DNA of 64,000 nucleotides, taken from positions 3,029,001 through 3,093,000 of the forward strand of contig JAUPFP010000003.1 of assembly GCA_036925085.1 (NCBI GenBank), written 5' to 3'. Position numbers and translations under genes: made by a program. Shown piece after piece: positions 3,095-63,802 of the stretch. The notes under the pieces were generated by a model. The model was not told the DNA's origin and searched no databases. It saw nothing but the letters and a program-made list of their open reading frames with translations. Numbering within the stretch: the stretch's first letter is position 1; each line of letters opens with the position of its first letter. This DNA is from Brachycybe producta (lineage: Eukaryota; Arthropoda; Diplopoda; Playtdesmida; Andrognathidae).

Positions 3095-3504
3095 ACAGGC
3101 AAGTGACAGGCAATTAGAAATCGGGATGAACAGAAGTTGGCTCCGCCCTTTTTATGACGAACGGCAACTTCTAATTGGTTTGTTGTGTGGTTCCACGTTG
3201 AAAAAGGGCGGAGCATGTGACGTCAAACTACATAACCAACCAATTAGAAGTTTCCGTTCGTCATAAAAAGGGCGGAGCCAACTTCTGTTCGTCCCGTTTT
3301 CTAATTGCCTGTGGCAAGTGTGCCCAGCAGTAAAATTTTGTTTTCCCCGCCCTTTTATGAGTGTCAGACCAAATATTAACCAATTAGAAATTGAAAAGGG
3401 CGGAGCATATGTGACATCAGACCCAGTAACAAACCAATTAGAAATTTATGACGCTCATAAAAGGGTGGAGCCAAAAAATTCTGAAGCTGTCTACAGATGC
3501 CTGT
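3095..3504. mobile_element. Chimeric ACAGGCA foldback element (C-type left arm, B-type right arm) interrupted by copy A1
   Basis: The left end (ACAGGCAAGTGTGCCCAGCA after removing the insert) matches subfamily C (31806-32002). The right end (AGCTGTCTACAGATGCCTGT) matches subfamily B (25478-25618, 46540-46737). The two ends are therefore not inverted repeats of each other beyond ACAGGCA/TGCCTGT. The core carries GGGCGGAG, CCAATTAG and TGACATCA. No flanking duplication is seen (CCGAACAC versus GAAAAACG), which fits an origin by recombination rather than one transposition. Confidence 0.7.
3106..3312 (+). mobile_element. ACAGGCA foldback MITE, copy A1
   Basis: A 207-bp element with long inverted arms (ACAGGCAATTAGAAATCGGG and its complement). 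It is flanked by a perfect 8-bp duplication GGCAAGTG (3098-3105 and 3313-3320) and sits inside the chimeric element around it. The core has TGACGTCA at 3218-3225, GGGCGGAG/CTCCGCCC and several CCAATTAG. No ORF for a transposase, so it would be mobilised in trans. Confidence 0.9.
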
Positions 3505-3870
3505 GAAAAACGTTCGCTTGAAAAATGTAAATTTTCTTAAAACCGCGGGTGAAGACAGGCAATTAGAAAACAGGACGAACAGAAGTTGGCTCCGCCCTTT
3601 TTATGACGATCGGCAACTTCTAATTGGTTTATGTGGTTCGACATTGAAAAAGGGCGGAGCATCTGACGTCAGACTACATAACCAACCAATTAGAAGTTGC
3701 CGTTCGTCATAACTGTCATAACGTCATAACTGTTTGTCTCGATTTCTAATTGCCTGTCGGGTGAAGTGGGAAAGAGACAACCATATAAAACATACTAGCC
3801 AATGCAGTGGCGCCATCTGAGAGGACAAAAACAAAATAAATATCTATTCAGCCACCTTTACAACCATCAT
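3505..3870. mobile_element. Family K repeat arm interrupted by A2, carries CTCF-like site
   Basis: GAAAAACGTTCGCTTGAAAA and the downstream AAATAAATATCTATTCAGCC match the right half of the foldback at 37286-37870. It contains CAGTGGCGCCATCTGA at 3805-3820. A2 interrupts it. Confidence 0.65.
3555..3757 (+). mobile_element. ACAGGCA foldback MITE, copy A2
   Basis: Same arms and core as A1, with TGACGTCA at 3664-3671 and a partly disrupted right arm. Flanked by a perfect 9-bp duplication CGGGTGAAG (3546-3554, 3758-3766). The host repeat (family K) has an unoccupied relative near 37774 (AAACCGCGCTGGTGAGAGG), which supports real insertion. Confidence 0.9.
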
Positions 3871-4275
3871 GAAAATGTTAATATTAGTCAATTCTAGTTT
3901 CTTATAAAATTCTTGAATAACACAAAAGAAGATAAGGGAAAAAGAGTTAACAACAGTGGGCTAAAAAGGGGTCACTTTTAGTGTCAGTTGTTTGACCCAC
4001 TTATGACCCTCCAAATATAATCTAGAAACAAAGAATATTTAATCTTCTCATTTCATAATAAGAAAAGTTGAAATGAATACAAGAAGAACACACACACACA
4101 CATTAGACATTCTTATTTTCTTAAGAATATCAGACAACAAAATAAGATAAATATAAACAAAAGTTCTTTCATGTGAAAAGGTTAGAAGAAGAAAAAAAAA
4201 ATTCATGATCAAACAACAATGCAATGGAAAAGTACACCCTGCATACGTTATGGAAAATGTAAGGAGGCCTTAAGG
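3871..4275. other. AT-rich spacer
   Basis: A short (CA)n near 4090-4102 and A-rich DNA. No gene or clear element. Confidence 0.4.
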
Positions 4276-4331
4276 GTACATAGACCACGTTTTTTACGAC
4301 TGCAAAATGAAGTCGAAGGTGGTTGCAGCTG

Positions 4332-4537
4332 ACAGGCAATTAGAAAACGGGATGAACAAAATTGGTTCCGCCCTTTTTATTGACGAACGGCAACTTCTAA
4401 TTGGCTGGTTATGTAGTCTGACGTCACATGCTCCGCCCTTTTCAATGTCGAACCACACAACAAACCAATTAGAAGTTGCCGTTCGTCATAAAAAGGGTGG
4501 AGTCAACTTCTGTTCGTTCCGATTTCTAATTGCCTGT
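4332..4537 (-). mobile_element. ACAGGCA foldback MITE, copy A3
   Basis: Intact arms (ACAGGCAATTAGAAAACGGG ... TTTCTAATTGCCTGT), CRE palindrome at 4419-4426, inverted relative to A1/A2. No clear target duplication (TGCAGCTG versus TAATTTTG), so one flank may have been rearranged. It abuts a family K arm at 4538. Confidence 0.85.
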
Positions 4538-4775
4538 TAATTTTGAGAGAAATATTTATATTTTTCAAGCGAACGTTTTTCAGAAGAAACATTACGGGGA
4601 AAAAAAAATTCAAAAGTGTTTTAGAAACTAGAATAGTTGGTGATAATGCTAAAAGTTTTTTTCAATGATGATTTATGGAGGGGGTGGAGGAATGAGACAT
4701 ATAGAACAAAATCGCCACAGCAGTGGCGCCATCTAAGAGGACGAAAATGAAATAAATATCTATTCAGCCACCTTA
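4538..4775. mobile_element. Family K repeat fragment with CTCF-like site
   Basis: TTTCAAGCGAACGTTTTTCA and GAAACATTACGGGG resemble the left half of the K foldback. CAGTGGCGCCATCTA lies at 4721-4735, followed by the AAATAAATATCTATTCAGCC end. Middle part diverged or deleted. Confidence 0.6.
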
Positions 4776-5764
4776 AAGAGAACTCTTTTTTTTTTGTTTG
4801 AATTATTTGATGCGTGTAAACAATGACCCAAACTTTATATTTTAGTCATTTATGCATTAATTTAATCCGGCTGAATTTCTGCCACATTGGGTCACCTTAT
4901 CATAAGCCCCCCCTTCATATCTAAAAGTGTTATAGGAAAAAGGGAAGAGATGAGGGGGGGGGGGGGGTTGAATAGATGGATATAAAGTAGAATTGATTGA
5001 ATAAATTTCAGAGAGAGAAATGGTGGTGGAAGAACAGATTAGAAACACATGCACACTTCCTAATAATAATAATAATTATAATACAGAAAGTGTGTGGGGG
5101 TGGGAGGATTTAAGTGTTTCACCCAACCACCCACTTTCATCCCTCTCCTCCCCCTCCTCTCTTTATAATATTCAATGATAAGTTTTTGGCAGAAAGAGGA
5201 GGTTAGAGGGTAGAAGAAGGTTTTAGTTGGTCCATTCAGCCACCTCTCTCTCTCTCTCTGTCTCCCTTCAAACACATCCTCTCTTTTTAATGTAATCTCT
5301 AATATTTTGAATTACATAATAGAAGAAGAAGAGACTAGAAAACTCACAGGACTGGAAAAAATATTAAAATATATATTATAGTCATCATCATCATCACATC
5401 AAACCCAAACAAAAAGTGAATTTTAAATGATATTCTCCCTATTATTATCACAAAAAAAATATGATAAAAAGCCAAATGTTAAATGACTTTAAAAACTGAC
5501 TTTCATAATGGAGTTCAAAAGGAAATAATGTTTAGGGGTCATTCAAAAAGTCAAAAAAGTGATAATATGTGAATTTCTATTGTCTTTTTGTTCTTCCATT
5601 TTTCTTTATTCTTCTCGAAAAAAAAATAACCTCAAAGGACATTTCTGTCAAAAAAAAAAGTACTTAAAATAGTTCAGAAGTGGCCATTTGCAAAAAAATA
5701 TGCAAATGAAGGAAAACAATAAAAATATATAAACTTTTGGGTCCTATTCTGTGTTTCTTAAGGT
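4776..5764. other. Low-complexity AT-rich spacer with G14 run
   Basis: About 1 kb with no recognisable gene. It has a 14-G run (4954-4967), a short CT run near 5240-5260 and ATC/TAA micro-repeats. Short frames here have no protein-like character. Confidence 0.5.
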
Positions 5765-5779
5765 GTGACCCTTATACAT

Positions 5780-6080
5780 AATACACACCTGATCATTTAA
5801 ATGCATTTAAATAATAAACGTGTTCTACAGAGCCCCGTGAAGGACAAACAAATAATATGTCGAATTCTCAATTTATTCAGTTAATTAATCTGAAAATATT
5901 GAGTTAATACTTAAATATAATCAGATAAACTATTGACATTAAAATATTGATTTAGTATTTCAATTTAAAATATTAATAATAAAAGTCAATTTTTATTTGG
6001 TGTTCATGTCCTTAACTGGATTCCGTATAAATTCACCGAAACACATTTAATTTCAATTCATTTAACTCATGTGTGTATAC
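5780..6080 (+). mobile_element. F2 element (TACC...GGTA), copy 1
   Basis: Member of a family of about 300 bp with the sequence order ACACACCTGATAATTTAAAT, AAACGTGTTCTACAGAGCCC, TGTCGAATTCAATTTATTCA, CTTAACTGGATTCCGTATAA, GAATTCATTTAACTCATG, GTGTACAAGGTAT. No ORF. Ends resemble TA-target MITEs (Tc1/mariner-like), inferred only from the TATACC...GGTATA ends. Confidence 0.75.
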
Positions 6081-6100
6081 TCATGTCATGTATTAACTAA

Positions 6101-6411
6101 GGTATAATACACACCTGATAATTTAAATGCATTTAAATAATAAACGTGTTCTACAGAGCCCTGTGAAGGACAAACAAACAATATGTCGTCGAATTCAATT
6201 TATTCAGTTAATTTATCTCAAAATATTGAGTTAATACTTAAATATATAAACTATTGACAAAATATTGATTTAGTTATTTCAATTTAAAAATATTAATAAT
6301 AAAGTCAATTTTTATTTGTTGTTCATGTCCTTAACTGGATTCCGTATAATTCACCTATAAACACATTTAATTTGAATTCATTCAACTCACGTGTGTGTAC
6401 AAGGTATTAGG
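6101..6411 (+). mobile_element. F2 element, copy 2 (tandem neighbour)
   Basis: Nearly complete second copy in the same orientation about 20 bp after copy 1, ending GTGTGTACAAGGTATTA. Together they form a direct pair, from insertion near an existing copy or from local duplication. Confidence 0.8.
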
Positions 6412-6585
6412 TTTTTTTTATTAGAATTAATTACAAATGATGCCACTAGGTGGAGTTACATGAATTCACGTGGCGGCCACTCCCTTAGATTTCTATGGAC
6501 GTGGTTTAAGTGTTAAACGCCTCCTAGAACTCTTCATTAAATCAATTCTGTCAGAAGAGCAGAATTAAGAAAAAAACTTGAATGC
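6412..6585. promoter_or_regulatory. Spacer with CTCF-like TGCCACTAGGTGGAG
   Basis: TGCCACTAGGTGGAG at 6441-6455 fits the shape CCA-C-TAG-G-TGG of the CTCF core. CACGTGG follows at 6469-6475. Function not shown. Confidence 0.35.
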
Positions 6586-6799
6586 GTTTTAGAAACTAGA
6601 AGAGTATCTCAAAAACGCTTAAATGTATTTTCATATTGATATCGTTCAAAATAAACTTTTAATAGTACTTTAAAAGGATCCAAATTTAAGCGGGCGATAT
6701 TTTTGTTCTAACTTCTGTCAATAAAAAGTGTAATTTTAAAAATATCACAGCATGAAAATACCCTTAAGTGATTGAGCTACCCTTCTAGTTTCTAAAACA
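6586..6799. mobile_element. F1 CTAG foldback element
   Basis: Inverted arms GTTTTAGAAACTAGAAGAGT ... CCCTTCTAGTTTCTAAAAC, with inner arms of the type TTCAAAATAAACTTTT and AAAGTGTAATTTTAAAAATA. Transcribed, it would form a long imperfect hairpin. No ORF. Flanks carry the family's outer signature (CTTCTGAAAGACAGAAT type). Confidence 0.8.
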
Positions 6800-7131
6800 T
6801 TTTTTTAGGATTTTCTTAATTTTTATAAGTTCAAAAATAATCTGTTCATAAAATCATCTTAAAAATATTCATTTTAGTTTATTTTTTGTTTTAAAAATGT
6901 TTCAAAACATTGTTTTTCAGGTAAGAAGTGTTTTTTTTTTCTGATGAAACAAAAAAACGGCGTGAAAAATAACAACAATAATTACGTCATTTACGAAAAA
7001 CAAAAGGTAAGATTTCGAATTTTGATTTCATTTTTATCTAAATTTCGATGTTTTATCACGTGATTTCTTTTCTTCAAAATCTGCTTTTTATTGCGTTTTC
7101 AGAAGAGCAACCGCAAATGACAAATTGAAAA

Positions 7132-7309
7132 TATTTTAGAAACTAGAAGGGTAGCTGAAGGTTTGCTATTTTTCAAAATAAACTTTTTACAAAGACACAA
7201 ATTTAAAAAAAAAAATATTGTTCGCTTGATATAAAAAGTTTATTTTAAAAGATATCACAACATGAAAATACATTTAAGCAATTTAGCTACCCTTCTAGTT
7301 TCTAAAACA
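7132..7309. mobile_element. F1 CTAG foldback element
   Basis: Arms TATTTTAGAAACTAGAAGGG and CCCTTCTAGTTTCTAAAACA with inner complementary TTCAAAATAAACTTTTTA / AAAAGTTTATTTTAAAAGAT. Shorter loop than the first copy. Confidence 0.8.
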
Positions 7310-7448
7310 TTGAATTCTCTCTTAATTTTGTTCCTAAAAGACTAGAATATATTATCAGAGTTCGAGAGGAGCGGTTAACACTTAAACCACCTTTAAGATG
7401 TTTTAGTTTGTCTTACAGAAGAACAAAAACGAAGAGAAATTAAAAAAT

Positions 7449-7619
7449 GTTTTAGAAACTAGAAAGGTTTCTCAATCACATAAGAGCAATTTCATGTTAA
7501 TATCTGTCAAAATAAACTTTGTATAGATGGAAATAGTACAATTAAAAAGTTTATTTTAAAAGATATCAACATGAAAATAATCTTAAGTGATTCAGCAAAC
7601 CATTCTAGTTTCTAAAACA
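7449..7619. mobile_element. F1 CTAG foldback element
   Basis: Arms TGTTTTAGAAACTAGAAAGG and CATTCTAGTTTCTAAAACAC, with the inner TCAAAATAAACTTT / AAAGTTTATTTTAAAAGATA pair. Third copy in about 1.1 kb. Confidence 0.8.
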
Positions 7620-7869
7620 CTTTCTAGTTTCTTTTCATGTTGCTTCTGAAACACAGAATAATCATGAGTTCAAACTTTAAAACCAACTTAAATATTAGTG
7701 ATTTTAATTATTTTAATTATAACGAACTTTGTTAAATATGAAGTATTAACTTTTCAAAGAAAGAAATTCGAAGTTTTAAAAAACTAGAATGTTTAAAAGG
7801 TAAACTTTCATGACATTATTCAAAATAAACTATATTCCAGCTTGAAAATACAACACAAATACAGAAAAA

Positions 7870-8010
7870 AAATTATACTTTAAGTCAAAAGTGACGGTTT
7901 AAAGGCTAGACTTTTCATAGAGTTTAGCCTCTAACCAAGTCTCTTTTTATTGCAAAATAATCATAATTGTTTTTGCCGTAACGAGGATAATCGTGATGCT
8001 TGCAGTGATT
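7870..8010. mobile_element. F3 (GGCTCGG / TTAGAGGCTA) fragment
   Basis: Contains the AAAGGCTAGACTTTT ... AGCCTCTAACCAAGTCT foldback centre found in the full F3 element at 32564-32883. Ends are missing. Confidence 0.5.
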
Positions 8011-8071
8011 GCCCTTCTTTAGGAGCTAATATGTAATAAATAGGGCTGAGTAGGTGTTTATCCGAGTAATA

Positions 8072-8374
8072 CCTAATACCTCGTAAACAGTCATGAGTTA
8101 AATGAATTTAAATTAAGTGTTTAGGGTGAATTATACGGAATCCAGTTAAGGACACGAATACCAAATAAAAATTGACTTTAATTATTAATATTTTAAATCG
8201 AAATACTAAATCAATATTTTTCTCAATAGTTTATATTATTATATTTAAGTATTAACTCACTATTTTCAGATTATTAACTGAATAAATTGAATTCGATGAC
8301 ATATTGTTTGTTTGTCCTTCACGGGGCTCTGTAGAACACGTTTATTATTTAAATGCATTTAAATTATCAGGTGT
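8072..8374 (-). mobile_element. F2 element, copy 3 (reverse)
   Basis: Reverse-complement copy: GAGTTAAATGAATTTAAATT, TACGGAATCCAGTTAAGGAC, GAATTCGATGACATATTGTT, CTGTAGAACACGTTTATTAT, AAATTATCAGGTGT. The far end lacks the usual TACCTAGTAC. Confidence 0.8.
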
Positions 8375-8471
8375 GGACTAGCTTACTGTATAAGAGATAA
8401 CCGTAAATTCTAACTTTGGCACGCATTTAACATGTTTTATGATTAGTTGATGCAAAATTATAAGAAACTAG

Positions 8472-12060: not shown

Positions 12061-12339
12061 CAACTAAAATGAAATGGTGGAAAAAAAAAAAAGAAAAGTC
12101 TTTCCAATAGAAATTGCAATGTTATTAACCCTAAACTCTCACTTCCAAACAATGTCTAATTGTTTACAAAAGAGTTTAAATTGTATTGGGGCCAAAACTA
12201 AATCCCAAATGGACATGTATCCATATTATTACTAATGTCTTTCCCTCCTCCCCCCCCTTTCCAAAAAAAACTCATCTGCAATTGAAGAAATAGACACAAG
12301 TTTTTTTTAGGTACCTGTTTCAAACATAGCCTATATATT
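12057..12339. other. Unannotated spacer
   Basis: No feature beyond short C and A runs. Confidence 0.4.
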
Positions 12340-12531
12340 ACTGTCAATCTGTGGAAACAGTCAATCTGCAGATTACCTAGGTAATCTGCAAAACAACCAA
12401 CCTGCTAGCTGAATCTGCAAAATTCAACAACCTAAAATGTATTCAATTTTGCAGATTCGCTAGCAGTTTCGGTGGTTTTTTGCAGATAGTCTAGGCCATC
12501 TGCAGATTGACTGATTCCACAGATTGACAGT
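12340..12531. mobile_element. CTGTCAATCTGC foldback element, copy 1
   Basis: Almost wholly an inverted repeat: ACTGTCAATCTGTGGAA ... TTCCACAGATTGACAGT, with inner CAGATTACCTAGGTAATCTG and GCTAGCTGAATCTGCAAAAT / ATTTTGCAGATTCGCTAGC. The second copy is at 35947-36151. 192 bp, no ORF. Confidence 0.85.
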
Positions 12532-12551
12532 AACATATACATTGAGTTAAA

Positions 12552-14134: not shown

Positions 14135-14329
14135 ACAGGCAAGTAAAGACAAGGACACGCAGATGTTTACCCGGCCCTTTTATGAGCGTCATCAATTTCT
14201 AATTGGTTTGTTACTTTGGTCTGATGTCACAAGCTCCGCTCTTTTCAATTTCCAATTGGTTGATATTTGGTCTGATGCTCATAAAAGGGCGGAGCAAACG
14301 TCTGCGTGTCCCTGTCTTTACATGCCTGT
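14135..14329 (-). mobile_element. ACAGGCA foldback element, subfamily D (D1)
   Basis: Arms ACAGGCAAGTAAAGACAAGG ... CCTGTCTTTACATGCCTGT, differing from A, B and C except for ACAGGCA. Core has GGCCCTTTTATGAGCGTCAT, CTAATTGGTTTGTTA, TGATGTCA and AAAGGGCGGAGC. Flanks are poly-A on both sides, so the duplication cannot be read. Confidence 0.8.
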
Positions 14330-25242: not shown

Positions 25243-25723
25243 TAGGGCTCGGATTTTTATGCAATAATATCAAAGTAAATGTTTCTCAATCTGTGGCTCA
25301 ATGTCGACCAATTGTGAAGCAACAATAATCCCCCCATTTAGATCAACCAACAATTATTTTTTTTTTCCAATCAAAAACACTGGTTAGAGGCTAAATCGCT
25401 AGTTGACAACTTATAGTAACTAGACATCTAGCCTCTAACTAGTCTTTTTTATTAGAAAAAAATAATAATAATTGCAGACAGGGCATCTGTAGACAGCTTC
25501 AGAATTTCTTCGGCTCCGCCCTTTTGAGCGTCAGACCAAATATCAACCAATTAGAAATTGATGACGCTTATAAAAGGGCGGAGCCGAAGAAATTCTGAAG
25601 CTGTCTACAGATGCCTGTTAATTGCAGTTGTTCTAATGATGATGATTACTTCACAGTTGGCCCTTGGGGCCACAATTTGAGAAACACTTTTGCTTTGAAT
25701 ATTTGCATAAAAATCCGAACCTT
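25243..25723 (+). mobile_element. F3 hAT-like MITE, copy 2, carrying nested B1
   Basis: TAGGGCTCGGATTTTTATGC start and GCATAAAAATCCGAACCTT end. Internal GGTTAGAGGCTAAATCG pairs with TCTAGCCTCTAACTAGTC. B1 interrupts the right half. Without B1 the length is about 330 bp, close to the 320 bp of the clean copy at 32564. Confidence 0.85.
25478..25618. mobile_element. ACAGGCA foldback element, subfamily B (B1), short form
   Basis: ACAGGGCATCTGTAGACAGC ... GCTGTCTACAGATGCCTGT, a 141-bp near-perfect palindrome with CGGCTCCGCCCTTTTGAGCG. Flanked by an exact 9-bp duplication TAATTGCAG (25469-25477, 25619-25627). Lacks the TGACATCA core of the longer B2. Confidence 0.92.
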
Positions 25724-30903: not shown

Positions 30904-30904
30904 G

Positions 30905-31119
30905 TGTCTTAGAAACTAGAAGGGTAGCTCAACCACTTAAATAGTCAATTTTCAAGTTGATATCTTTCAATATAAACTTTTCCGTCAGTTTGAAAATAAA
31001 CCAACGTTAAGCAGGCATGTTTTATAATTTTTGTCTATAAAAAAAGTTTATTTTGAACGATATCAACTTGAAAAATACCCTTTTAAGTGATTGAACTACC
31101 CTTCTAGTTTCTAAAACAC
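30905..31119. mobile_element. F1 CTAG foldback element
   Basis: Well-kept copy: GTCTTAGAAACTAGAAGGGT, ATCTTTCAATATAAACTTTT, AAAGTTTATTTTGAACGATA, ACCCTTCTAGTTTCTAAAAC. Confidence 0.85.
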
Positions 31120-31483: not shown

Positions 31484-31689
31484 ACACGCAATTAGAAATC
31501 GGGACGAACAGAAGTTAGCTCCGTCCTTTTTATGACGACGGGCAACTTCTAATTGGTTGGTTATGTAGTCTGACGTCACATGATCCGCCCTTTTCAACGT
31601 CCAACCACACAACAAACCAATTAGAAGTTGCCGGTCGTCATAAAAATGGCGGAGTCAACTTCAGTTCGTCCCGATTTCTAATTGCCTGT
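31484..31689 (-). mobile_element. ACAGGCA foldback MITE, copy A4
   Basis: Left terminus mutated to ACACGCA, right terminus TGCCTGT. TGACGTCA at 31571-31578. Flanking 9-mers CGAAGAAAA and CGAAGAACG are a near-duplication. Inserted in F1 outer-flank sequence. Confidence 0.85.
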
Positions 31690-31805: not shown

Positions 31806-32002
31806 ACACCCAAGTGTGTCCAGCAATAGCTTTTCGTTTGCTCCGCCCCTTTTATGAGCGTCAGACCAAATATGAACCAATTAGAAATAAAAAAGGGCGG
31901 GGCATATGTGACATCAAATCAAATAAACCAAATTAGAAATTGATGACACTCATAAAAGGGGCGGAGCACACGAAAAGCTAGCTGCTGGCCACACTTGCCT
32001 GT
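31806..32002 (+). mobile_element. ACAGGCA foldback element, subfamily C (C1)
   Basis: Arms ACACCCAAGTGTGTCCAGCA ... TGCTGGCCACACTTGCCTGT; TTTTCGTTTGCTCCGCCCC against GGGGCGGAGCACACGAAAA. Flanked by an exact 10-bp duplication GTTTGCCAAG (31796-31805, 32003-32012). The core has TGACATCA, not the CRE. A hairpin ACCACTAAAAAGTGGT lies just upstream at about 31775-31790. Confidence 0.9.
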
Positions 32003-35544: not shown

Positions 35545-35946
35545 TATATAACAAGAATGTTAATTATGACCAAAACGGCGCCTCATACACGCGACTCGCA
35601 ATTGAAAACAAAAGCGAGAAAAAATGAATCAAAAGAAGGAAAATTGTCTTCTTCTTCTTCATGGTGTTAATTTAAATCAAACTTCATTGAAACGCATTTC
35701 TATTTATTAAGGCTTTTAAAAAAGACGTTTTTTTTTTAAGAAGAAGAAGAAGAAAAAGGTTTAAATAAATAGAAAAGCGGAATAAAAGTGAAGAAAGACA
35801 GAAAAAATATGGACGACGACGACTAAAAGTAATCGTCGAAGGCGTTGGCGCGTAGCTAATACCTTTGCCCACGAATTAGTAGAATCGACGTTCGAAAGTG
35901 ACAACTGTGAGAGAACGAGAGAGAGAGATAGAAAGATATATAGGTT
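35542..35946. other. Spacer
   Basis: Short AAG/GAC runs; no gene. Confidence 0.4.
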
Positions 35947-36151
35947 ACAGTCAAACTGCGGAATCAGTCAATCTGAGGATTGCCTAGGTAATGTGCAAAC
36001 CCCCCCCCCCCCCCAACCCTGCTAGCTGAATCTGCAAAAAATTCAACACCTCTAAAATGTATTGAATTTTGGCATGATTCCACTAGCAGTTTGGTGGTTT
36101 TGCAGATTGCCTAGGCAATATGCAGATTGACTGATTCCGCAGATTGACTGT
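35947..36151. mobile_element. CTGTCAATCTGC foldback element, copy 2
   Basis: ACAGTCAAACTGCGGAATCA ... TGATTCCGCAGATTGACTGT with inner GATTGCCTAGGTAAT / ATTGCCTAGGCAAT. Carries a C15 run (36000-36014) absent from copy 1, showing that C-runs arise inside elements. Confidence 0.85.
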
Positions 36152-36417
36152 AACATATACATAGATAGAGAGAAAGAGAATCTTTCTCTTTTTAAGAGAT
36201 CATCCTTCTCTCTCTCTCAAATTACTAGACTAACTTAAAACCTCCCCCGAAAAATTTAGATCCACAAACGGGTCGATTTTTCATCAAAACTTAAGGCATT
36301 GTTTCCACTGGAGGTGAAAATTTGAACTTTTCTGCATTAAAGCTCAGTACACACACACATTACGACAAAATCACAACAAACTACCGAGACTTGACGATGA
36401 TTTTAAAAGGCTACATC
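36152..36417. other. Spacer
   Basis: No feature recognised. Confidence 0.35.
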
Positions 36418-36602
36418 TACAGGAAGTTGGCTCCGCCCTTTTTATGACGAACGGCAACTTCTAATTGTTTGTTTATTTAGTCTGACGTCACATGCTTCCG
36501 CTCTTTTCAACGTCGAACAACACAACAAACCAATTAGAAGTTGCCGGTCGTCATAACAAGGGCGGAGCCAACTTCTGTTTGTTCCGTTTTCTAATTGCCT
36601 GT
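36418..36602 (-). mobile_element. ACAGGCA foldback MITE, copy A5 (left arm truncated)
   Basis: Begins at ACAGGAAGTTGGCTCCGCCC, missing about 22 bp of the arm. TGACGTCA at 36483-36490; right end CTAATTGCCTGT. No duplication found. Confidence 0.8.
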
Positions 36603-40329: not shown

Positions 40330-40536
40330 ACAGGCAATTAGAAATCGGGACAAACAGAAGTTGGCTCCGCCCTTTTTATGACGACCGGCAACTTCTAATT
40401 GGTTTGTTGTGCGGTGTTCGACGTTGAAAAGGGCGGAGCATATGACGTCAGACTACACGACCAACCAATTAGAAGTTGAGTTCGTCATAAAAAGGGCGGA
40501 GCCAACTGAAATTCGTTCCGATTTCTAATTGCCTGT
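40330..40536 (+). mobile_element. ACAGGCA foldback MITE, copy A6
   Basis: ACAGGCAATTAGAAATCGGG ... CGATTTCTAATTGCCTGT, TGACGTCA at 40443-40450. Flanks AAAATAAAT / GAAATAACT are similar but not identical. Confidence 0.88.
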
Positions 40537-46539: not shown

Positions 46540-46737
46540 ACAGGCATCTTGTAGACAGTTTCAAAAATTTCTTTGACTCCGCCCTTTTTATGAGCGTCAG
46601 ACCAAATATCAACCAATTAAAAAATGAAAAGGGCGGGGCATGTGACATCAGACCCACTAACAAACCAATTAGAAATTGATGACGCTCATAAAAGGGGCGG
46701 AGCCAAAGAAATTTTGAAGCTGTTTACAGATGCCTGT
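46540..46737 (+). mobile_element. ACAGGCA foldback element, subfamily B (B2), full length
   Basis: ACAGGCATCTTGTAGACAGT ... GCTGTTTACAGATGCCTGT. Core AACCAATTAAAAAATGAAAA, GGGCGGGGCATGTGACATCA, CAAACCAATTAGAAATTGAT. Flanks CCAAAACTG / CTAAAACAG match at 7 of 9. Confidence 0.88.
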
Positions 46738-47403: not shown

Positions 47404-47592
47404 ACAGACAAGTGTGCTCAGCACAATACTATCGTTTGCCCCGCCCCCTTTATGAGCGTCAGACTAAATATCAATTAGAAATTAAAAAGGGCATGTGACA
47501 TCAGACCAAATAACAAACTAATTAGAAGTTTGCCATTCATCATAAAAGGGGGCGGGGCAAACGACTGTATTGTGCTGAGCACATCTGCCTGT
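47404..47592 (+). mobile_element. ACAGGCA foldback element, subfamily C (C2)
   Basis: ACAGACAAGTGTGCTCAGCA ... TGTGCTGAGCACATCTGCCTGT. Arms match through CAATACTATCGTTTGCCCCG/GGGGCAAACGACTGTATTG. The core is shortened. Confidence 0.82.
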
Positions 47593-47608: not shown

Positions 47609-47819
47609 ACAGGCAATTAGAAATAGGGAGAAACAGAAGTTGGCTCCGCACCTTTTTATGACGACCGACAACATCTTCTAATTTGTTGGTTATGTAGTCT
47701 GACGTCACATGCTCCGCCCTTTTTAACGTCGAACCACACAACAAACCAATTTAGAAGTTGCCGGTCGTCATAAGAAGGGCGGAGCCAACTTCTGTTTGTC
47801 CCGATTTCTAATTGCCTGT
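47609..47819 (-). mobile_element. ACAGGCA foldback MITE, copy A7
   Basis: ACAGGCAATTAGAAATAGGG ... CCCGATTTCTAATTGCCTGT, TGACGTCA at 47700-47707. The right flank runs into a B-type half, so it may have inserted in or recombined with a B element. Confidence 0.85.
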
Positions 47820-47892
47820 GTAACAAACCAATTAGAAATTGATGACGCTCATTAAAATGGCGGAAGCCGAAGCTGTGTCTACAGATGCCTGT
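47820..47892. mobile_element. B-type right half
   Basis: AACAAACCAATTAGAAATTG, GACGCTCATTAAAATGGCGG, GTGTCTACAGATGCCTGT: the distal half of a B element with no matching left half. Confidence 0.75.
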
Positions 47893-47899: not shown

Positions 47900-48107
47900 A
47901 CAGGCAATTAGAAAACTGGATGAACAGAAGTTGGCTCCGCCCCTTTTTATGACGACTGACAACTTCTAATTGGTTGCTTTTGTCGTCAGACGTCACATGC
48001 TCCGCCCTTTTTAACGTCGAACCACACAACAAATCAATTAGAAGTTGCCGTTCGTCATAAAAAGGGGCGGAGCCAACTTGTGTTCATCTCGTTTTCTAAT
48101 TGCCTGT
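47900..48107 (-). mobile_element. ACAGGCA foldback MITE, copy A8
   Basis: ACAGGCAATTAGAAAACTGG ... GTTTTCTAATTGCCTGT. The CRE has decayed to AGACGTCA. No duplication (TATTTCAA versus TAACTTGG). Confidence 0.85.
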
Positions 48108-51566: not shown

Positions 51567-51854
51567 ACAGGCAAGTAAAGACAGTAAGATACAGTCGTTT
51601 GCTCCGCCCCTTTTATGACAACCGGCAACTTCTAATTGGTTTGTTGTGTAATTCAACGTTGAAAAGGGCGGAGAATGTGACGTCAGACTACATAACCAAC
51701 CAATTAGAAGTTGCGTTCATCATAAAAAGGACGGAGCCAACTTCTGTTTGTCCAGATTTCTAATTGCCTGTACTTCTAATTGGTTTGTTATTTGGTCTGA
51801 CGCTCATAAAAGGGCGGGACAAACGACTGTATCTCCCTGCCTTTACATGTCTGT
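51567..51854 (+). mobile_element. Chimeric ACAGGCA element D2 (D arms around an A-type core)
   Basis: Outer arms ACAGGCAAGTAAAGACAGTA ... CTGCCTTTACATGTCTGT are D. From CTCCGCCCCTTTTATGAC rightward the sequence is A-type, including TGACGTCA at 51678-51685 and a full A right end (CTAATTGCCTGT at about 51761-51772). After that, D-type core resumes. Flanks CTACCAAG / CTATCAAG (7 of 8) suggest the whole unit transposed once. Confidence 0.8.
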
Positions 51855-54663: not shown

Positions 54664-54871
54664 ACAGGCGATTAAAAATCGGAACGAACAGAAGTTGGCT
54701 CCGCCCTTTTTATGACGACTGGCAACTTTCTAATTGGTTGGTTATGTAGTCTGACGTCACATGCTCCGCCCTTTTCAACGTCGAACCACACAACAAACCA
54801 ATTAGAAAGTTGCCGGTCGTCATAAAAAGGGCGGAGCCAACTTCTGTTTGTCCCAATTTCTAATTGCCTGT
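54664..54871 (-). mobile_element. ACAGGCA foldback MITE, copy A10
   Basis: ACAGGCGATTAAAAATCGGA ... CAATTTCTAATTGCCTGT, TGACGTCA at 54752-54759. Flanking CCCTTAAAA / TCCTTAAAA (8 of 9 identical). Lies 10 bp after the GTTCGCGAACA element. Confidence 0.9.
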
Positions 54872-55591: not shown

Positions 55592-55749
55592 GTGTTAGAA
55601 ACTAGAACGGGTAATTGAATCACTTAATAGTTATATAAAATCTTTTCAATATGAAAAGATCTTTTTTTTTAAAAAAAAAAGCTTATTTTAAAAGATATCA
55701 ACATGAAAATAGCCTTAAATGATTGAGCTACCCTTCTAGTTTCTAAAAC
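55592..55749. mobile_element. F1 CTAG foldback element
   Basis: GTGTTAGAAACTAGAACGGG ... TACCCTTCTAGTTTCTAAAA; inner arms partly replaced by A-runs. Confidence 0.8.
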
Positions 55750-55854
55750 AAATTCAAAGTTTCTCTTCATTTTGCTCCTTTGAAAGGACAAAAATAATCA
55801 AAAATTCGAGAGGCGTGTCTTTGTGAGATGCAAAAATGAAGAGAAACTTTGAAA

Positions 55855-56066
55855 GTGTTTTAAAAACTAGAAGGGTAGCTCAATAAACTTAAATTGTAAA
55901 ATAGTAATTTCAAGTTACTATCTTTCAAAATAAACTATTTATGGCAGTTTGAAAATGACTCAACTTTAAACAAGACAATATTTTTGAATTTTTGTCTATA
56001 AAAAGTTTATTTTGAAAGATATCAAAAAATATGTAAATTGTTTAATTACCCTTCTAGTTTCTAAAA
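55855..56066. mobile_element. F1 CTAG foldback element
   Basis: GTGTTTTAAAAACTAGAAGG, CTTTCAAAATAAACTATTTA, AAAGTTTATTTTGAAAGATA, ACCCTTCTAGTTTCTAAAAA. Confidence 0.85.
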
Positions 56067-58010: not shown

Positions 58011-58256
58011 GGAAAATTAAAGCCAATTAAAGTTAAATTAGAATAATTTTATTCGATTTCTGCCTATAGAATAGAATTATTTAAATTAAGATAAATTCTA
58101 TTTTCAGTTTCAGTTCGGCGTTTTCTTTTTATCAGACAGACTTTCAGCCTCTTAGAAATTTCTAGGAAAAATTACAGGAAGTTTCTAGCAAATTGCAAGC
58201 AGAAAACTTTCAGAAATCTTTGCAGAATTATTACAGAAAATCTAAGGGGTTTTTTT

Positions 58257-58630
58257 TCCCACACGAACCACTTTTTAGTGGTCGAGAGTTCAACTCCAAA
58301 ATGTAGTCGTCCTGTCGCTCGTATGAAAACATCCTTTCCGTCGCAATACAATTATCAACCACACATCCCAGCCACTTGTGATAGCATTTAACAGTCGAAC
58401 TCGACCACTTAAAAGCGATCCGTGTACAAAGGATCTTTTGCACACGAACCACTTTTTAGTGGTTGAGTTCAACTGCAAAATGTGGTCGTCCTGTCGCTTG
58501 TGCGAAAAAGTCAGACGTCTTTTCATAGAAGTACAATTATCAACCACACATTCCAGCCACTTGTGATAGCATTTAACAGTCGAACTCGATTACTAAAAGT
58601 AGTAAAAACACAAAAGTGGTCCGTGTTTCA
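58257..58630. mobile_element. Tandem pair of ACCACTTTTTAGTGGT elements, about 182-bp unit
   Basis: Each unit runs CACACGAACCACTTTTTAGT, GTTCAACTGCAAAATGTGGT, CGTCCTGTCGCTTG, AATTATCAACCACACATTCC, CAGCCACTTGTGATAGCATT and TAACAGTCGAACTCGA, then a decayed AAAGTGGTCCGTGT. Ends are inverted repeats. Single remnants at 1.77, 4.28, 13.54 and 31.77 kb. Confidence 0.75.
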
Positions 58631-59081
58631 AAGGCTCCTACAGGAAATGTGTCGAATTTACGCCAATTTGTACATTATTTTTTTATGTTTTCTGATGTCG
58701 TGAAACATGTTTTTTTAAAAAACGGATGTCGAAACGCAAATAAAACGATTCCAGAGCCTCTCTCTGCTCTGTCTCTCAAGCGGTTTTCTCTCTTTCGCTT
58801 TATTTCTAATGATAAATGAGCGTTTTGTCTGAATTCATTTTCACCTGCAGCTGTGTATATCTCAGTTTAAGACCTATTTATCATTATTCAAATATTAAAT
58901 ATATAGCCATTTAATAAAAAAGATGATGATGTTCTCTAATAATGACAATAAGGAAGGGGGTTGGACGAGGCTAGGTTCTTAATGAGAGTCCAACGACCAG
59001 GATGCACCTGTGTAACTATTGTAAACATTAAATTTTAATGTTTACTACTTAGCCTACTACAATTGGAATAATATTAAAAAC
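58631..59081. other. Spacer
   Basis: No gene or element recognised. Confidence 0.35.
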
Positions 59082-59555
59082 GCCGGGTTCACATCAAGCT
59101 CACAAAACAAAACAGAAACTCAATGTTTCGAGAGGCAAATTGGCTACAATAATAAAACATTTCTGCAACTTTTGTGTTTTGTTCTAAAACATTTCTGCAA
59201 CGTTTGTGTTTTGTCTTCAATTTCACAAAACTATTCCATGTCTTCCGGTTCAAATCGGTAAACATCAAAATGTTTTTGTTTTGTCTCTGTATTATGCAAC
59301 ATTTTGTCAACTGTTGTCTGTGCAGTTGTTGACAATTAGTATTAAAACAACAACAGAACAGTTGCGTAGTTTACCCGTATGGAGCGCTATAGAAACACAA
59401 AACAAAACCCAAATTTGTTTGTGTTGTGTCGCACAAATTTGTTGTGGTTTTGTCTTGTTTTATTTTCCAGAATCTGCTTTTTCTCTGGCGTTTTTGTTGA
59501 GTTTTTGTCTCGAACTCATGTTGCACTTTTTGTCAGCTTGGTGTGGACCCGGCCT
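59082..59555. mobile_element. GCCGGGTTCACATCAAGCT element, unit 1
   Basis: Inverted ends GCCGGGTTCACATCAAGCTC and AGCTTGGTGTGGACCCGGCC. Inside: CAATGTTTCGAGAGGCAAAT, AAACATTTCTGCAACGTTTG, CAACTGTTGTCTGTGCAGTT. An open frame here is not kept cleanly in unit 2. Confidence 0.75.
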
Positions 59556-60033
59556 TTATGTCCGATACACATCAAGCTGACAAAACATAAAACAGAAACG
59601 CAATGTTTCGAGAGACAAATTGGCGACAATTCTAAAACATTTCTGCAACGTTTGTGTTTTGTCTTTAATTTCACAAAACTATTCCATGTCTTCCGCAGCT
59701 CAAATCGGTAAACATCAAAATGTTTTTGTTTTGTCTCTGTATTATGCAACATGTTGTCAACTGTTGTCTGTGCAGTTGTGGACATTTAGTATTAAAACAA
59801 CAACAGAACAGTTGCGTAGTTTACGTAGAGGACAGCTACAGAAACAAAAACAAAACCCAAATTTGTTTCTGTTTTGTGTCGCACAAATTTGTTGTGGTTT
59901 TGTCTTGAGTAACTGCTGACAGTTGTTTCAGTTTTGTTTTGTTTTCAAAATCGGCTTTTTCTGTAATATTTGTTGTGTTTTTGTCTCTTGAACTCATGTT
60001 GCACTTTTGTGTCAGCTTGATGTGAACCCGGCC
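59556..60033. mobile_element. GCCGGGTTCACATCAAGCT element, unit 2
   Basis: Directly abutting second copy in the same orientation (about 475 bp), ending AGCTTGATGTGAACCCGGCC. The left end is degraded to GTCCGATACACATCAAGCTG. Close similarity points to a recent tandem duplication. Confidence 0.75.
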
Positions 60034-60279
60034 TTCCAGTTTTCCTCTCCATTAGGATTCAATGAGAAAACAGAACAAAATAACTGTTTAGATTAATTAA
60101 TTTTTATTCAGTTAGTTAAACCACTTTTACGAGGTCCATAAATTCTCTAATTTGATTGTAATCTTGTTTAGAGACTAGATTGGTCATTTACTCACCTTTG
60201 TTTTGTTTTCTTTGTAGGAGCAACTTCGAAGATGAAAATATGTTAGAAACTAGAAAAGAAAAGAAATATGGAAATTAAT
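60034..60279. other. Spacer
   Basis: No feature recognised. Confidence 0.35.
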
Positions 60280-60815
60280 AGTTTGAAAAATCGTTTTACA
60301 CGAAAAATCGGATAACACGAAATATTAAAAATAATATACAAATTCTATTTTTAATACGAATATCGTTTAACTGAAGAAAAAATAGTGAAAACCGTTTAAC
60401 ACGAAATATTAAAATAATATAAAAATTCTATTTTTAATACGAATATCGTTTAACTGAATAAAAAAATAGTGAAAACCGTTTAACACAAAAAATCGGATAA
60501 CACGAAATGTATTTACAGTCTATTAGAAAAATATAAAAATTCTTCTTAATACGAAATTCGTTTAACACGATTTAAAAACCTGTGAAAAAGCATTAAACTT
60601 GAAAACATAACACGAAAAATCGGATAACACGAAATATTAAAAATAATATAAAAATTCTGTTTTTAATACGAATATCGTTTAACTAAAAAGACATAAAGTG
60701 AGAACCGTTTAACACGAAAAATCGGATAACACGAAATATATTTTCGGTCCAGTCCTTTATATAGAAAGAATATCAAACTTCTTTTAATACGAAATTCGTT
60801 TTAAATTGTTAAACG
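60280..60815. repeat. AACACGAAA tandem array, second locus
   Basis: Units of about 110-120 bp: AAAAATCGGATAACACGAAA, TATTAAAAATAATATAAAAA, TTCTATTTTTAATACGAATA, TCGTTTAACTGAA, GAAAACCGTTTAACACGAAA. Shares the ATCGGATAACACGAAATAT word with 27.9-28.6 kb, 32 kb away. Confidence 0.85.
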
Positions 60816-60878
60816 TGGCCTCTTCAACTCTTTTATCTTCTGTCTTTCAGGTGGAAAATGAAGAGAAACTAGAAAGTG

Positions 60879-61075
60879 TTTTTTTTAGAAACTAGAAGGG
60901 TAGTTCAATCACTTAAGGATATTTTCATGCTGTGATATCTTTCAAAATAAACTTTTTATGGCAGTTTGAAAGCGACCCAACTTTAAGCAGACGATATATA
61001 AAGTTTATTTTGAAAGATATATCAAACGTGAAAATACCTCTTAAGTGATTGACCTACCCTTCTAGTTTCTAAAAC
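60879..61075. mobile_element. F1 CTAG foldback element
   Basis: TTTTTTTAGAAACTAGAAGG, TCTTTCAAAATAAACTTTTT, AAAGTTTATTTTGAAAGATA, ACCCTTCTAGTTTCTAAAAC; loop GCGACCCAACTTTAAGCAGA. Confidence 0.88.
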
Positions 61076-61118
61076 TCTTTCTAATTTTTTCATAATCTTG
61101 TTTCCAAGGGGGTTTTCC

Positions 61119-61332
61119 TAGAAGGGTAGCTCAATCACTTAAGGGGTCTTTTTTTTCATATTGATATATATAGTTCAAAATAAACTTTTTATAGTTAAAA
61201 TTATAAAATATCGTCGTCGTCTTAAAATTGGATCATTTTTAAAACACATAAAAAGTTTATTTTGAAAGATATCAAACGTGAAAATACCTCTGAAGTGATT
61301 GAGCTACTACTACCCTTCTAGTTTCTAAAACA
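61119..61332. mobile_element. F1 CTAG foldback element
   Basis: Left arm shortened to CTAGAAGGGTAGCTCAATCA; right arm CTACCCTTCTAGTTTCTAAA. Abuts the previous copy. Confidence 0.85.
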
Positions 61333-61380
61333 CAGTTCGAAAACGAGCGTTTCATTAACCCAATTAAGGAGAATTTGAAA

Positions 61381-61565
61381 GTGTGTTAGATACTAGAAGG
61401 CTCAATCACTTAATATTTTCATGTCGATATCTTTTTTTTATGGACAAACATTAAAAAAAAATGTCTGTCATTTTCAAACTGACATAAAAAGTTTATTTTA
61501 AAAGATATCCAAATGAAAATTTCTCGTAAGTGAATCAGAGCAATACCCTTCTAGTTTCTAAAACA
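61381..61565. mobile_element. F1 CTAG foldback element
   Basis: GTGTGTTAGATACTAGAAGG ... ACCCTTCTAGTTTCTAAAAC; third copy in 700 bp, with the left inner arm partly lost. Confidence 0.85.
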
Positions 61566-61628
61566 TTTTTTTTCTTGCTCCTGAAAAAAACATAAGCGAC
61601 TTTTACGCTTTAAAACTAGCTTTTAAAT

Positions 61629-61839
61629 ACAGGCAGTTAGAAATAGGTGAAAACTTCAGTCGGCTCCGCCCTTTTTATGACGATCGGCAACTTCTAATTG
61701 GGTTTGTTGTGTGGTTCGACGTTGAAAAGGGCGGAGAGCATGTGACGTCAGACATCATAACCAACCAATTAGAAGTTGCCAGTCGTCATAACAAGGGCGG
61801 AGCCAACTGAAGTTCTGACCGATTTCTAACTGTGCCTGT
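61629..61839 (+). mobile_element. ACAGGCA foldback MITE, subfamily E (A11)
   Basis: Arms ACAGGCAGTTAGAAATAGGT, AACTTCAGTCGGCTCC ... GGAGCCAACTGAAGTT, TTTCTAACTGTGCCTGT: an A variant in which both arms carry CAGTTAG and AACTTCAGT. TGACGTCA at 61743-61750. Exact 9-bp duplication CTTTTAAAT (61620-61628, 61840-61848). Confidence 0.92.
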
Positions 61840-61848
61840 CTTTTAAAT

Positions 61849-62340
61849 TCGTTTATTAAAAAATGTAGAATAGCCAATTTTGAAACACGCTTTCAGTTTC
61901 AGTTGTAACAATTTTGTGATAAGTGATACGACACAATTGGAAATTGTGTTTTTATTTATAAAAAAAAGATCGATTAGACTTTCCTAGGAAATAATGGGGT
62001 ATCAATATCATTCATTATCATCATCAGACTTTTTTTCTCATCATTTTTCTCTCTTTGAGGCTTTGTTAAACAAAATCCCTCAATTTTCAAAATACGAAAG
62101 AAAATCCTCTCCCTTTTCCCCTTCCTTTTTCCTTTCTTACAAAATTCCCCCTTTCCCCCTTTAAAAATGACTATTTAGAGGCTACACTTTTACACTCCAG
62201 TGTTACCCCCTTATTACACTAATTTACACACCAAACATTTAAAAAAAACGCAGGAAATTGATATTTAAACTCAATAAACACAGAAATGTGTATAAAGAAT
62301 GATTGCTCTGGGCAACTATACCCTAGTATAAGTTATGACT
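61849..62340. other. Spacer
   Basis: No gene or complete element recognised. Confidence 0.35.
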
Positions 62341-62352
62341 AGGGCTCGGATT
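62340..62352 (+). mobile_element. F3 left terminus stub
   Basis: TAGGGCTCGGATTT is the F3 start, cut off where A12 begins. The rest of F3 is not found after A12. Confidence 0.6.
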
Positions 62353-62560
62353 TACATGCAATTAGAAATCGGGACATACAAAAGTTGGCTCCGCCTTTTT
62401 TATGACGACTGGCAACTTCTAATTGGTTTGTTGTGTGGTTCGACGTTGAAAAGCGTGGAGCATGTGACGTCAGACTTCATAACCAACCAATTAGAAAGTT
62501 GCCAGTCGTTATAAAAAGGGCGGACCCAACTTCTGTATGTCCCGATTTCTAATTGCATGT
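62353..62560 (+). mobile_element. ACAGGCA foldback MITE, copy A12 with matched arm substitutions
   Basis: Both termini read ACATGC/GCATGT instead of ACAGGC/GCCTGT, and both arms have GGGACATACA instead of GGGACGAACA. TGACGTCA at 62465-62472. No clear duplication. Confidence 0.88.
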
Positions 62561-62607
62561 GTGTGTGAAATCCCTCTGAACTCCTTTCCTGGAAAACCTC
62601 TTTGAAA

Positions 62608-62815
62608 ATAGGCAGTTAGAAATCGGAGAGAACTTCAGTTGGCTCCGCCCTTGTTATGACGACTGGCAACTTCTAATTGGTTGGTTATGTAGTTTGACGT
62701 CAAATGCTCCGCTCTTTTCAACGTCGAACCACACAACAAACCCAATTAGAAGTTGCCGGTCGTCATAAAAAAGGGCGGAGCCAACTGAAGTTCTGCCCGA
62801 TTTCTAACTGCCTGT
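62608..62815 (-). mobile_element. ACAGGCA foldback MITE, subfamily E (A13)
   Basis: ATAGGCAGTTAGAAATCGGA ... CCGATTTCTAACTGCCTGT with AACTTCAGTTGGCTCC arms; TGACGTCA at 62695-62702. Exact 8-bp duplication CTTTGAAA (62600-62607, 62816-62823). Confidence 0.92.
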
Positions 62816-62823
62816 CTTTGAAA

Positions 62824-63470
62824 AACTTGTAACTTGTGAAAGTCATGAAAACTCAATGCATATCCAATGTAAGGAATTGTAAAACCTTTGCGGGGGGAAA
62901 ATACCCTGTTAACCCCGACTAAACCTCAGGGTTGTAATTTCTCCCAACCTTAATGTCAAAACCCCAGTGAACCTTTCACTCTTTAAAGAAGAGTGGACCA
63001 CCCACAGTTAATTTTCACCTAAAGAGACGCCCATAATGTCAATGAATCATATTCTTTTATGATAATGACGTCACAACACCACTTAAAAGAAGAAAAAAAA
63101 AATGTCCAAAATCAGAAAGGAAGGAAGAAAATTTCTTCTTAATTAATAATAATTGAGTCGTGTTAATAATATAAGAATGCTAAAGAGGAGGTGACTAAAA
63201 GGGGGTGTGGGGGTGGGCCAAAAATAAAAAGAAACGTCATAAATTTGGCAAGTTACTTAAGTGTCATATTGCACTCATTAATCAGCAACAGCAGCCACCA
63301 AAGACCACTCCCAATGTGTATTAAAAAAACACAATAGAGGATAACATAAGAGACGTACAACCTCCCACCCCACAAATAATATAAGTATTATTAAAGGATT
63401 GGGGGGGGGGGAGGAGGAGGGTAGAGAGAGATTATTAATATTTATTACAGGGTGGAACACTAAATACAGG
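62824..63470. other. Spacer with G11 run
   Basis: G homopolymer 63401-63411 and purine-rich flank. No gene. Confidence 0.4.
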
Positions 63471-63802
63471 ACAGGCATTTAGAAATCGGGATGAACAGAA
63501 GTTGGTTCCGCCCTTTTTATGACGACCGGCAACTTCTAATTGGTTGGTTACATAGTCGGACGTCACATGCGCCGCCCTTTTCAACGTCGAACCACACAAC
63601 AAATTAGAAGTTGCCGTTCGTCATAAAAAGGGCGGAGCCAACGTCTGTTTGTCCCGATTTCTAATTGGTTTGTTGTGTGGTTCGACGTTGAAAAGGGCGG
63701 ATCATTTGACGTCAGACTACATAACCAACAAATTAGAAGTTGCCGTTCGTCATAAAAAGGAGCGAAGCAAACGTATGTTCGTTCCGATTTCTAATTGCCT
63801 GT
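63471..63802. mobile_element. ACAGGCA foldback MITE, long double-core copy (A14)
   Basis: 332 bp. Order: left arm, minus-oriented core (GGACGTCA), a middle arm segment GTTTGTCCCGATTTCTAATT, plus-oriented core (TGACGTCA at 63707-63714), right arm. Exact 9-bp duplication AAATACAGG (63462-63470, 63803-63811) shows the doubled form was inserted as one unit or grew after insertion. Confidence 0.9.

What the first reader, a model, noticed from the sequence alone, without database searches (positions are those of the whole stretch)
3095..63802. Modular ACAGGCA foldback superfamily: related cores, exchangeable terminal arms
About 20 copies or parts share ACAGGCA...TGCCTGT ends and a related core (CTCCGCCC, TTATGACG, CTAATTGGTT, GGGCGGAG) but have at least five outer arms of 25-40 bp: A CAATTAGAAATCGGG, B CATCTGTAGACAGCTTC, C CAAGTGTGCCCAGCA, D CAAGTAAAGACA, E CAGTTAGAAAT. 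Copies with mixed arms exist. The arms seem to be swapped between elements while the core persists, which is unusual for MITEs and may be an undescribed family.
Basis: partly seen in the sequence, partly recalled or inferred. Interest (0 to 1): 0.75.

Follow-up and report, generated by a model that had tools for sequence, protein, structure and literature searches.

The report
Hairpin mini-transposons with recombined ends
The repeats are an abundant family of tiny hairpin-shaped jumping DNA elements whose ends are sometimes mixed between copies, most likely because copies at different places recombine; the kind is known, although the enzyme that moves this family was not identified.

Summary
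In detail: 34 ACAGGCA in the window against 4.0 expected, about 21 copies or parts in 4.2 kb, and 6,347 full-length copies genome-wide against 56 for the reversed control pattern. Copies are about 190-210 bp with hairpin-forming inverted arms and 8-10 bp, usually 9-bp, target-site duplications: short non-autonomous elements, of Mutator (MULE) type by TSD length and build. No partner transposase with ACAGGCA ends was found; 9 of 21 MULE matches were read. The 'five exchangeable arms' are variants of one homologous arm, aligned without gaps and mosaic inside. The two arms of one element usually match: 57 of 68 share a major class, where random pairing would give 24%. Elements with unlike arms more often lack a TSD (p=0.0005) although their cores are no more diverged. 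Arm and core trees agree partly. Best reading: arms diverge by descent, and a minority of copies are chimeras made by ectopic recombination or conversion, as published for Galileo; nested self-insertion plus deletion is a second route (51567-51854). New member of a known kind.

The parts
3095..3504 (+). Element with C-type left arm and B-type right arm (mixed), interrupted by the A-type copy 3106-3312; no TSD
   Evidence: flank test p=0.38
3106..3312 (+). A-type foldback-shaped copy, 207 bp, nested in the C arm of 3095-3504; 8-bp TSD GGCAAGTG
   Evidence: hairpin -94 kcal/mol, z -19.9
3555..3757 (+). A-type copy, TSD CGGGTGAAG 9/9
4332..4537 (+). A-type copy with unlike arm subtypes (A2/A), no TSD
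14135..14329 (+). D-type copy (D2 arms), flanked by A-runs (TSD not informative)
25478..25618 (+). B-type copy with internal deletion, TSD TAATTGCAG 9/9
31484..31689 (+). A-type copy (left end ACACGCA), TSD-like TCGAAGAA 8/8 with shifted ends
31806..32002 (+). C-type copy, degraded left end ACACCCAAG, flanks GTTTGCCAAG 10/10 by eye (9/9 with shifted ends)
36419..36602 (+). A-type copy, left arm truncated, no TSD
40330..40536 (+). A-type copy with unlike inner half in the right arm (classed A/E); TSD-like 8/9 with shifted ends (p=0.02)
46540..46737 (+). B-type copy, weak TSD (8/10, p=0.046)
47404..47592 (+). C-like copy, degraded left end, no clear TSD (p=0.08)
47609..47819 (+). A-type copy abutting the right half of a B-type copy; no TSD
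47820..47892 (+). right half of a B-type element; its left half is missing
47900..48107 (+). A2-type copy, no TSD
51567..51854 (+). Composite: D left arm, A core and A right arm ending at 51771, then a D right half; outer flanks CTACCAAG/CTATCAAG 7/8 (p=0.02)
54664..54871 (+). A-type copy (left end ACAGGCG), TSD CCTTAAAA 8/8 with one end shifted
61629..61839 (+). E-type copy, TSD CTTTTAAAT 9/9
62354..62560 (+). A-type copy with ends ACATGCA/TGCATGT, no TSD
62609..62815 (+). E-type copy, TSD CTTTGAAAA
63471..63802 (+). Composite 332-bp copy with a second core and right arm, perfect TSD AAATACAGG

Best explanation
This is a superfamily of short non-autonomous DNA transposons (MITEs, foldback in shape) that move by a Mutator-type (MULE) cut-and-paste transposase acting in trans on the ACAGGCA ends and duplicating 8-10, usually 9, bp of target. 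Shown: ends, inverted arms, TSDs, copy number. Inferred: the MULE transposase, because no partner with these ends was found. The arms are subfamily variants of one ancestral arm. Most copies carry two arms of one class. A minority are chimeras in which one arm, or half an arm, comes from another copy. The link between unlike arms and missing TSDs, at equal core divergence, points to ectopic recombination or conversion between dispersed copies (inferred); chimeras that keep a TSD would be conversion products or chimeras that transposed later. Nested insertion into their own kind, followed by deletion between shared core modules, is a second route (51567-51854).
For: TSDs: 44 of 68 full-length copies score >=5 (24 exact 9-bp, 4 exact 8-bp); mismatched flank pairs reach >=5 in 0.2%. 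6,347 copies against 56 control. Copy 3106-3312 folds at -94 kcal/mol, z -19.9 (the one whole copy folded). Arm similarity within an element: TSD+ mean 0.836 (44), TSD- 0.632 (14), p=0.0005. Core divergence equal, 0.071 and 0.063, p=0.49; arm difference still p=0.0012 there (44 TSD+ and 13 TSD-; the D/A copy 51567 left out because its arms span both sets), and p=0.004 in the A/E/T set alone. Mixed major class: 4 TSD+ / 5 TSD-, same class 40 / 9, Fisher p=0.03 (10 intermediate scores left out). Strict genome-wide counts: A/A 1,067, A/E 132, reversed controls 0. Arm class changes 15 times on the A/E/T core tree, minimum 4. Half-arm mosaics: C and D share the inner half (15/17) but not the outer (6/12), C and C2 the outer (11/12) but less the inner (11/17). 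Self-insertions: window 3106 (TSD GGCAAGTG); L094, a copy inside an A arm with ACAGAAGTT on both sides (read output).
Against: No autonomous element with ACAGGCA ends was found; the one MULE whose both ends were read begins ACTAGCG. Four mixed-class copies keep a good TSD, so exchange is not always by crossover. Five of the 14 TSD-less copies have like arms (similarity >=0.8: L019, L065, L079, W47609, W47900), so TSDs are lost in other ways too. B/C/D trees show no conflict between arms and core. Score cut-offs and class references were set by me and no others were tried. The sample is narrow: 50 of 68 copies come from the first 3.2 Mb of one contig, and the 177-214 bp length filter leaves composites out. 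Recombination between 200-bp copies about 10% diverged is expected to be rare (general knowledge).
Confidence: 0.7

Rival explanations
1. No exchange: arms simply diverge fast, tracking the specificity of different transposases, while the core drifts slowly; apparent mixing is homoplasy.
For: Left and right arms co-vary (Mantel r 0.59 and 0.86); arm and core trees agree in B/C/D; only 11 of 68 mixed.
Against: Unlike arms go with missing TSDs at equal core divergence; 15 arm-class changes on the A/E/T core tree with a minimum of 4; half-arm combinations.
Confidence: 0.15
2. Mixed arms arise mainly by insertion of one copy into another followed by deletion between shared modules.
For: 51567-51854 reads that way (insertion at ACTTCTAAT, then deletion between GGCAACTTCTAATTGG repeats; my reading of the sequence printed); nested copies at 3106 and in L094.
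Against: 10 of the 11 mixed copies (all but 51567) have ordinary length, 186-210 bp, and aligned as ordinary copies; 4 of those 10 lack a TSD. This is weak evidence, because the sample was selected for length 177-214 bp and so leaves long composites out.
Confidence: 0.1
3. TSD-less mixed copies are assembly joins.
For: Near-palindromic repeats are hard to assemble (general knowledge); reads were not available.
Against: The sampled chimeras lie on contigs of megabases; the A/E pattern recurs 132 times; three mixed copies (L078, L080, L082) keep a perfect 9-bp TSD.
Confidence: 0.05

Closest known systems
Galileo (P superfamily) chimeric copies, Drosophila mojavensis, PMC3573991
   Same: Foldback-like transposon with subfamilies defined by TIRs; 12 of 170 copies chimeric, flanked by unlike sequences instead of a TSD; one central region found with TIRs of three subfamilies (abstract, section 8 and passages).
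   Different: 7-bp flanking duplications, much longer, P-type transposase; here about 200 bp, mostly 9-bp TSD and thousands of copies.
Tetris / DAIBAM, Drosophila virilis, PMC4079207
   Same: Non-autonomous foldback, 8-10 bp TSD, assigned by its authors to Mutator, autonomous partner not found (passages).
   Different: Only three structurally complete copies there; its TIRs gave building blocks of a satellite DNA. No tandem arrays were reported inside the present elements.
Tm1 Mutator/Foldback family, root-knot nematodes, PMC3169594
   Same: Composite variable TIRs, 9-bp TSD, MITE-like members (abstract and one section).
   Different: TIR length varies by repeated units of mostly 14 bp; a Phantom-like transposase is known; low copy.
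MULEs with multiple TIRs in plants, PMC3310237
   Same: TIR rearrangement within MULEs, mostly in non-autonomous elements (two sections).
   Different: TIR duplication, mostly in tandem, not arm exchange; those 61 tomato elements all have TSDs.

Membership tests
MITE | Short, non-coding, high copy, terminal inverted repeats, TSD | tested here: met
   about 190-210 bp; 6,347 copies; TSD score >=5 in 44 of 68
Mutator (MULE) superfamily | 8-11 bp TSD | tested here: met
   mostly 9 bp, some 8. The 8-11 bp definition is from PMC6446971 (passages)
Mutator (MULE) superfamily | MULE transposase between, or acting on, the same termini | tested here: inconclusive
   21 PF10551 matches; 9 of 21 read (in L090-L097), none shown to have ACAGGCA ends; both ends determined for L090 only
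Foldback (FB) elements | Long inverted repeats that fold back on themselves | tested here: met
Foldback (FB) elements | Internally repetitive TIRs (as PMC3573991 abstract describes) | tested here: not met
   no tandem arrays within the window elements; so 'foldback' is used here for the shape, not for membership
Galileo / P superfamily | 7-bp (Galileo) or 8-bp (P, recalled) TSD | tested here: not met
   9-bp TSD predominates: 24 exact 9-bp, 4 exact 8-bp of 68
Galileo / P superfamily | P-type transposase | not tested
   no search made
Merlin superfamily | IS1016-type transposase, 8-9 bp TSD (recalled) | not tested
   PF12762 search did not complete

The most novel reading that the evidence does not exclude
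The 200-bp near-perfect palindromes break (as cruciforms or hairpins) and are repaired from copies elsewhere so often that they recombine despite being very short. Arm mismatch plus lost TSD would then be a readable record of very many past exchanges and chromosome rearrangements, and matching arms would be kept alike by conversion between the two arms of one hairpin.
Probability: 0.3. Interest if true: 0.55.

Novelty: new member of a known kind. Interest (0 to 1): 0.33.

Why it matters
With over six thousand copies that keep perfect ends, most of those sampled still carrying a TSD, the family would allow arm exchange between mini-transposons to be counted. Chimeras without TSDs could mark old rearrangement breakpoints. 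The family itself looks ordinary in build and mechanism.

Tried and rejected
Inner terminus idea: the core of A/E/T copies begins ACCGGCAACTTC, and some copies read ACAGGCAACTTC there (L021-L024). I considered a nested older element, but the variants centre on ACCGGCA (by eye) and the B/C/D core has no such boundary, so I dropped it.

Promoter idea: the A/E/T core holds TGACGTCA, GGGCGGAG and CCAAT. Their conservation (0.92-0.99) is close to the core mean (0.936), so there is no evidence of selection.

Age as the cause of lost TSDs: not supported. Exchange partners among TSD-less copies of the window: flanks compared, nothing beyond a 12-base match. Autonomous partner: L090 (other ends), L092 (Rehavkus-like), L095-L097 (RING-like), L091/L093/L094 (C2H2-type; their ends were not determined). 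A fold of the core of 40384-40482 was also better than shuffles (z -4.5); a fold of 14135-14280 was not (z 0.68), but that piece leaves out the right arm.

Literature on the letters ACAGGCA with transposon terms: 5 papers listed, none on such an element by title and abstract start (listing only). Other searches: (no paper). Repbase and Dfam were not available, so 'undescribed' is not claimed.

The E/E count was asked for and never answered; a C/B count did not complete either. So the genome-wide mixing rate is not known (A/A 1,067; A/E 132).
Full report
Observation. ACAGGCA occurs 34 times in the window on both strands, against a mean of 4.0 and a maximum of 9 in 100 shuffles. A blastn with 11 window copies merges into 18 stretches holding about 21 elements or parts, 4,239 bp. 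Twenty other 10-kb stretches of the same 295.3-Mb genome give 15 stretches, 1.2% of bases (7,500 of the 200,000 bases read N, cut-offs slightly stricter), so the window is about five times richer; the queries come from the window, which favours it. Genome-wide, ACAGGCA-N170-200-TGCCTGT occurs 6,347 times and the reversed control pattern 56 times.

Anatomy. Two length classes exist in the sample: about 206 bp (arms A, E, T; 47 copies) and about 194 bp (arms B, C, D; 20 copies). Copy 3106-3312 folds into a near-perfect hairpin, -94 kcal/mol, z -19.9; arms of other window copies are 78-91% complementary (longest pairs). Terminal ACAGGCA is followed by a 29-nt variable arm, a CTCCGCCC box, and a core. 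The two classes share a 56-bp core block (local score 68, best of 500 shuffles 22).

Target-site duplications. Of 68 full-length copies (50 from the C1 list, 10 from the window, 8 others), 44 score >=5, 10 are intermediate and 14 score <=0. 24 are exact 9-bp and 4 exact 8-bp. Mismatched flank pairs score >=5 in 0.2%. The sample required perfect 7-bp ends, so decayed copies are under-sampled. In the window, of 22 rows of copies or composites tested (two loci were tested in two ways), 13 have a best match with p<0.05 against random positions, some with shifted ends and one in A-runs, and 9 do not.

Arms. The arms of all classes have one length and align without gaps. Neighbouring classes are significantly alike (A-D2 19/29, D2-D 23/29, D-C 21/29, C-C2 22/29, B-C2 18/29; 0 of 5,000 shuffles; the printed header says 20,000, the script ran 5,000), while distant pairs such as A-B (p=0.055) or A-C2 (p=0.15) are not. 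Similarity breaks inside the arm: C resembles D in the inner 17 nt (15/17) but not the outer 12 (6/12), and C2 in the outer 12 (11/12). In the A/E/T set, position 8 (A, G, T) combines with inner motifs CAGAA, CACAA and CTTCA in 8 of 9 ways (81 arms typed, 13 of them with other inner motifs). So the five arms are variants of one arm with some internal mosaicism.

Pairing of arms. By major class 11 of 68 copies are mixed; random pairing would give 76%. Mantel correlations between left and right arms are 0.59 (A/E/T) and 0.86 (B/C/D); between arm and core 0.32-0.58. Genome-wide strict patterns give 1,067 A/A and 132 A/E copies; E/E could not be obtained.

Exchange and TSDs. Arm similarity within a copy averages 0.836 with a TSD and 0.632 without (p=0.0005). 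Core divergence is the same in both groups (0.071, 0.063; p=0.49), and the arm difference holds in both the less and the more diverged half (p=0.013 and 0.024, 57 copies after leaving out the intermediate scores and the D/A copy). Mixed classes: 4 with and 5 without a TSD; like classes: 40 and 9 (Fisher p=0.03). Against: four mixed copies keep a TSD, and five TSD-less copies have like arms. The three copies in hand with C and B arms (window 3095-3504, L003, L026) all lack a TSD.

Trees. With the 54 copies whose arms agree in subclass (36 A/E/T, 18 B/C/D), arm class changes 15 times on the A/E/T core tree (minimum 4; shuffled mean 21.3, none of 1,000 below 15) and 5 times on the B/C/D tree (minimum 5; shuffled mean 6.8). 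AU tests reject one clade for E (0.0135) and E2 (0.014), not for A, A2, T, B or C; seven tests, uncorrected. Association without full agreement is what occasional exchange predicts.

Nesting. Copy 3106-3312 lies inside a C arm with TSD GGCAAGTG. In L094 a copy lies inside an A arm between two ACAGAAGTT. The composite 51567-51854 can be read as an A copy inserted in a D copy at ACTTCTAAT, followed by deletion between shared GGCAACTTCTAATTGG modules (my reading).

Partner. PF10551 gives 21 matches. I read the DNA of 9, and two more are 99% copies of these (C28 of L090; C89:392818 of L092). L090 is a 4.2-kb MULE with 70-bp ends ACTAGCG..., not ACAGGCA. L092 has MULE over its cut-off, weak SWIM and PHD matches below theirs, and tandem repeats, like Rehavkus (Rehavkus features from PMC6446971 passages). 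Ends of the others were not determined. The MULE assignment of the ACAGGCA family therefore rests on TSD length and build alone.

Literature. Galileo chimeras (PMC3573991, abstract, section 8 and passages) are the closest case of arm exchange that I found. Tetris (PMC4079207, passages), Tm1 (PMC3169594, abstract and one section) and multi-TIR MULEs (PMC3310237, two sections) are the closest builds.

Verdict. An abundant, apparently non-autonomous MULE-type, hairpin-shaped MITE family with occasional chimeric copies.

Noticed in passing
L092 (C2:4231000-4239500) and C89:391943-396067: Rehavkus-like MULE (1088-aa frame; MULE match over its cut-off, PHD and SWIM below theirs) in a head-to-head palindrome with arms of at least 3,993 bp at 99.8% identity and tandem-repeat flanks; similarly paired PF10551 matches at C5 and C38 were not checked.
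   Followed up: partly
L090:3314-7486 (C13) and C28:2720786-2724979: 4.2-kb MULE with 70-bp ends, open 796-aa frame and a 99% second copy, so probably recently moved; flanks CCTTTTATC/CCTATTATC 8/9 by eye.
   Followed up: partly
L004:7648-7786, L007:7432-7553, L013:8036-8177, L020:6963-7104: A short (about 140 bp) ACAGGCAATTGTGCCC type sits in the same flanks (GAGCAAAATTC ... GATAAACT, with variants) in all four of these copies and in L093:6241-6386, so it travels inside a larger repeat of about 400 bp or more.
   Followed up: partly
L095, L096, L097: A MULE family with a RING-like motif near the C-terminus in L096 (by eye, no search), three copies about 94% alike, L097 with a long AEAQ repeat.
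   Followed up: no
L094, about 6013-6440: ACAGGCA-family copies sit at the 5' side of a MULE reading frame, whose open frame runs into the element's ATGCCTGT end.
   Followed up: no
window 12332-12539, 30904-31119, 35936-36162, 55722-55884: Other inverted repeats with arms of 52-78 bp not picked up by the ACAGGCA-family blastn.
   Followed up: no
window 1826-2442: Large tandem array with 29, 109 and 138-bp periods near the first cluster of elements.
   Followed up: no
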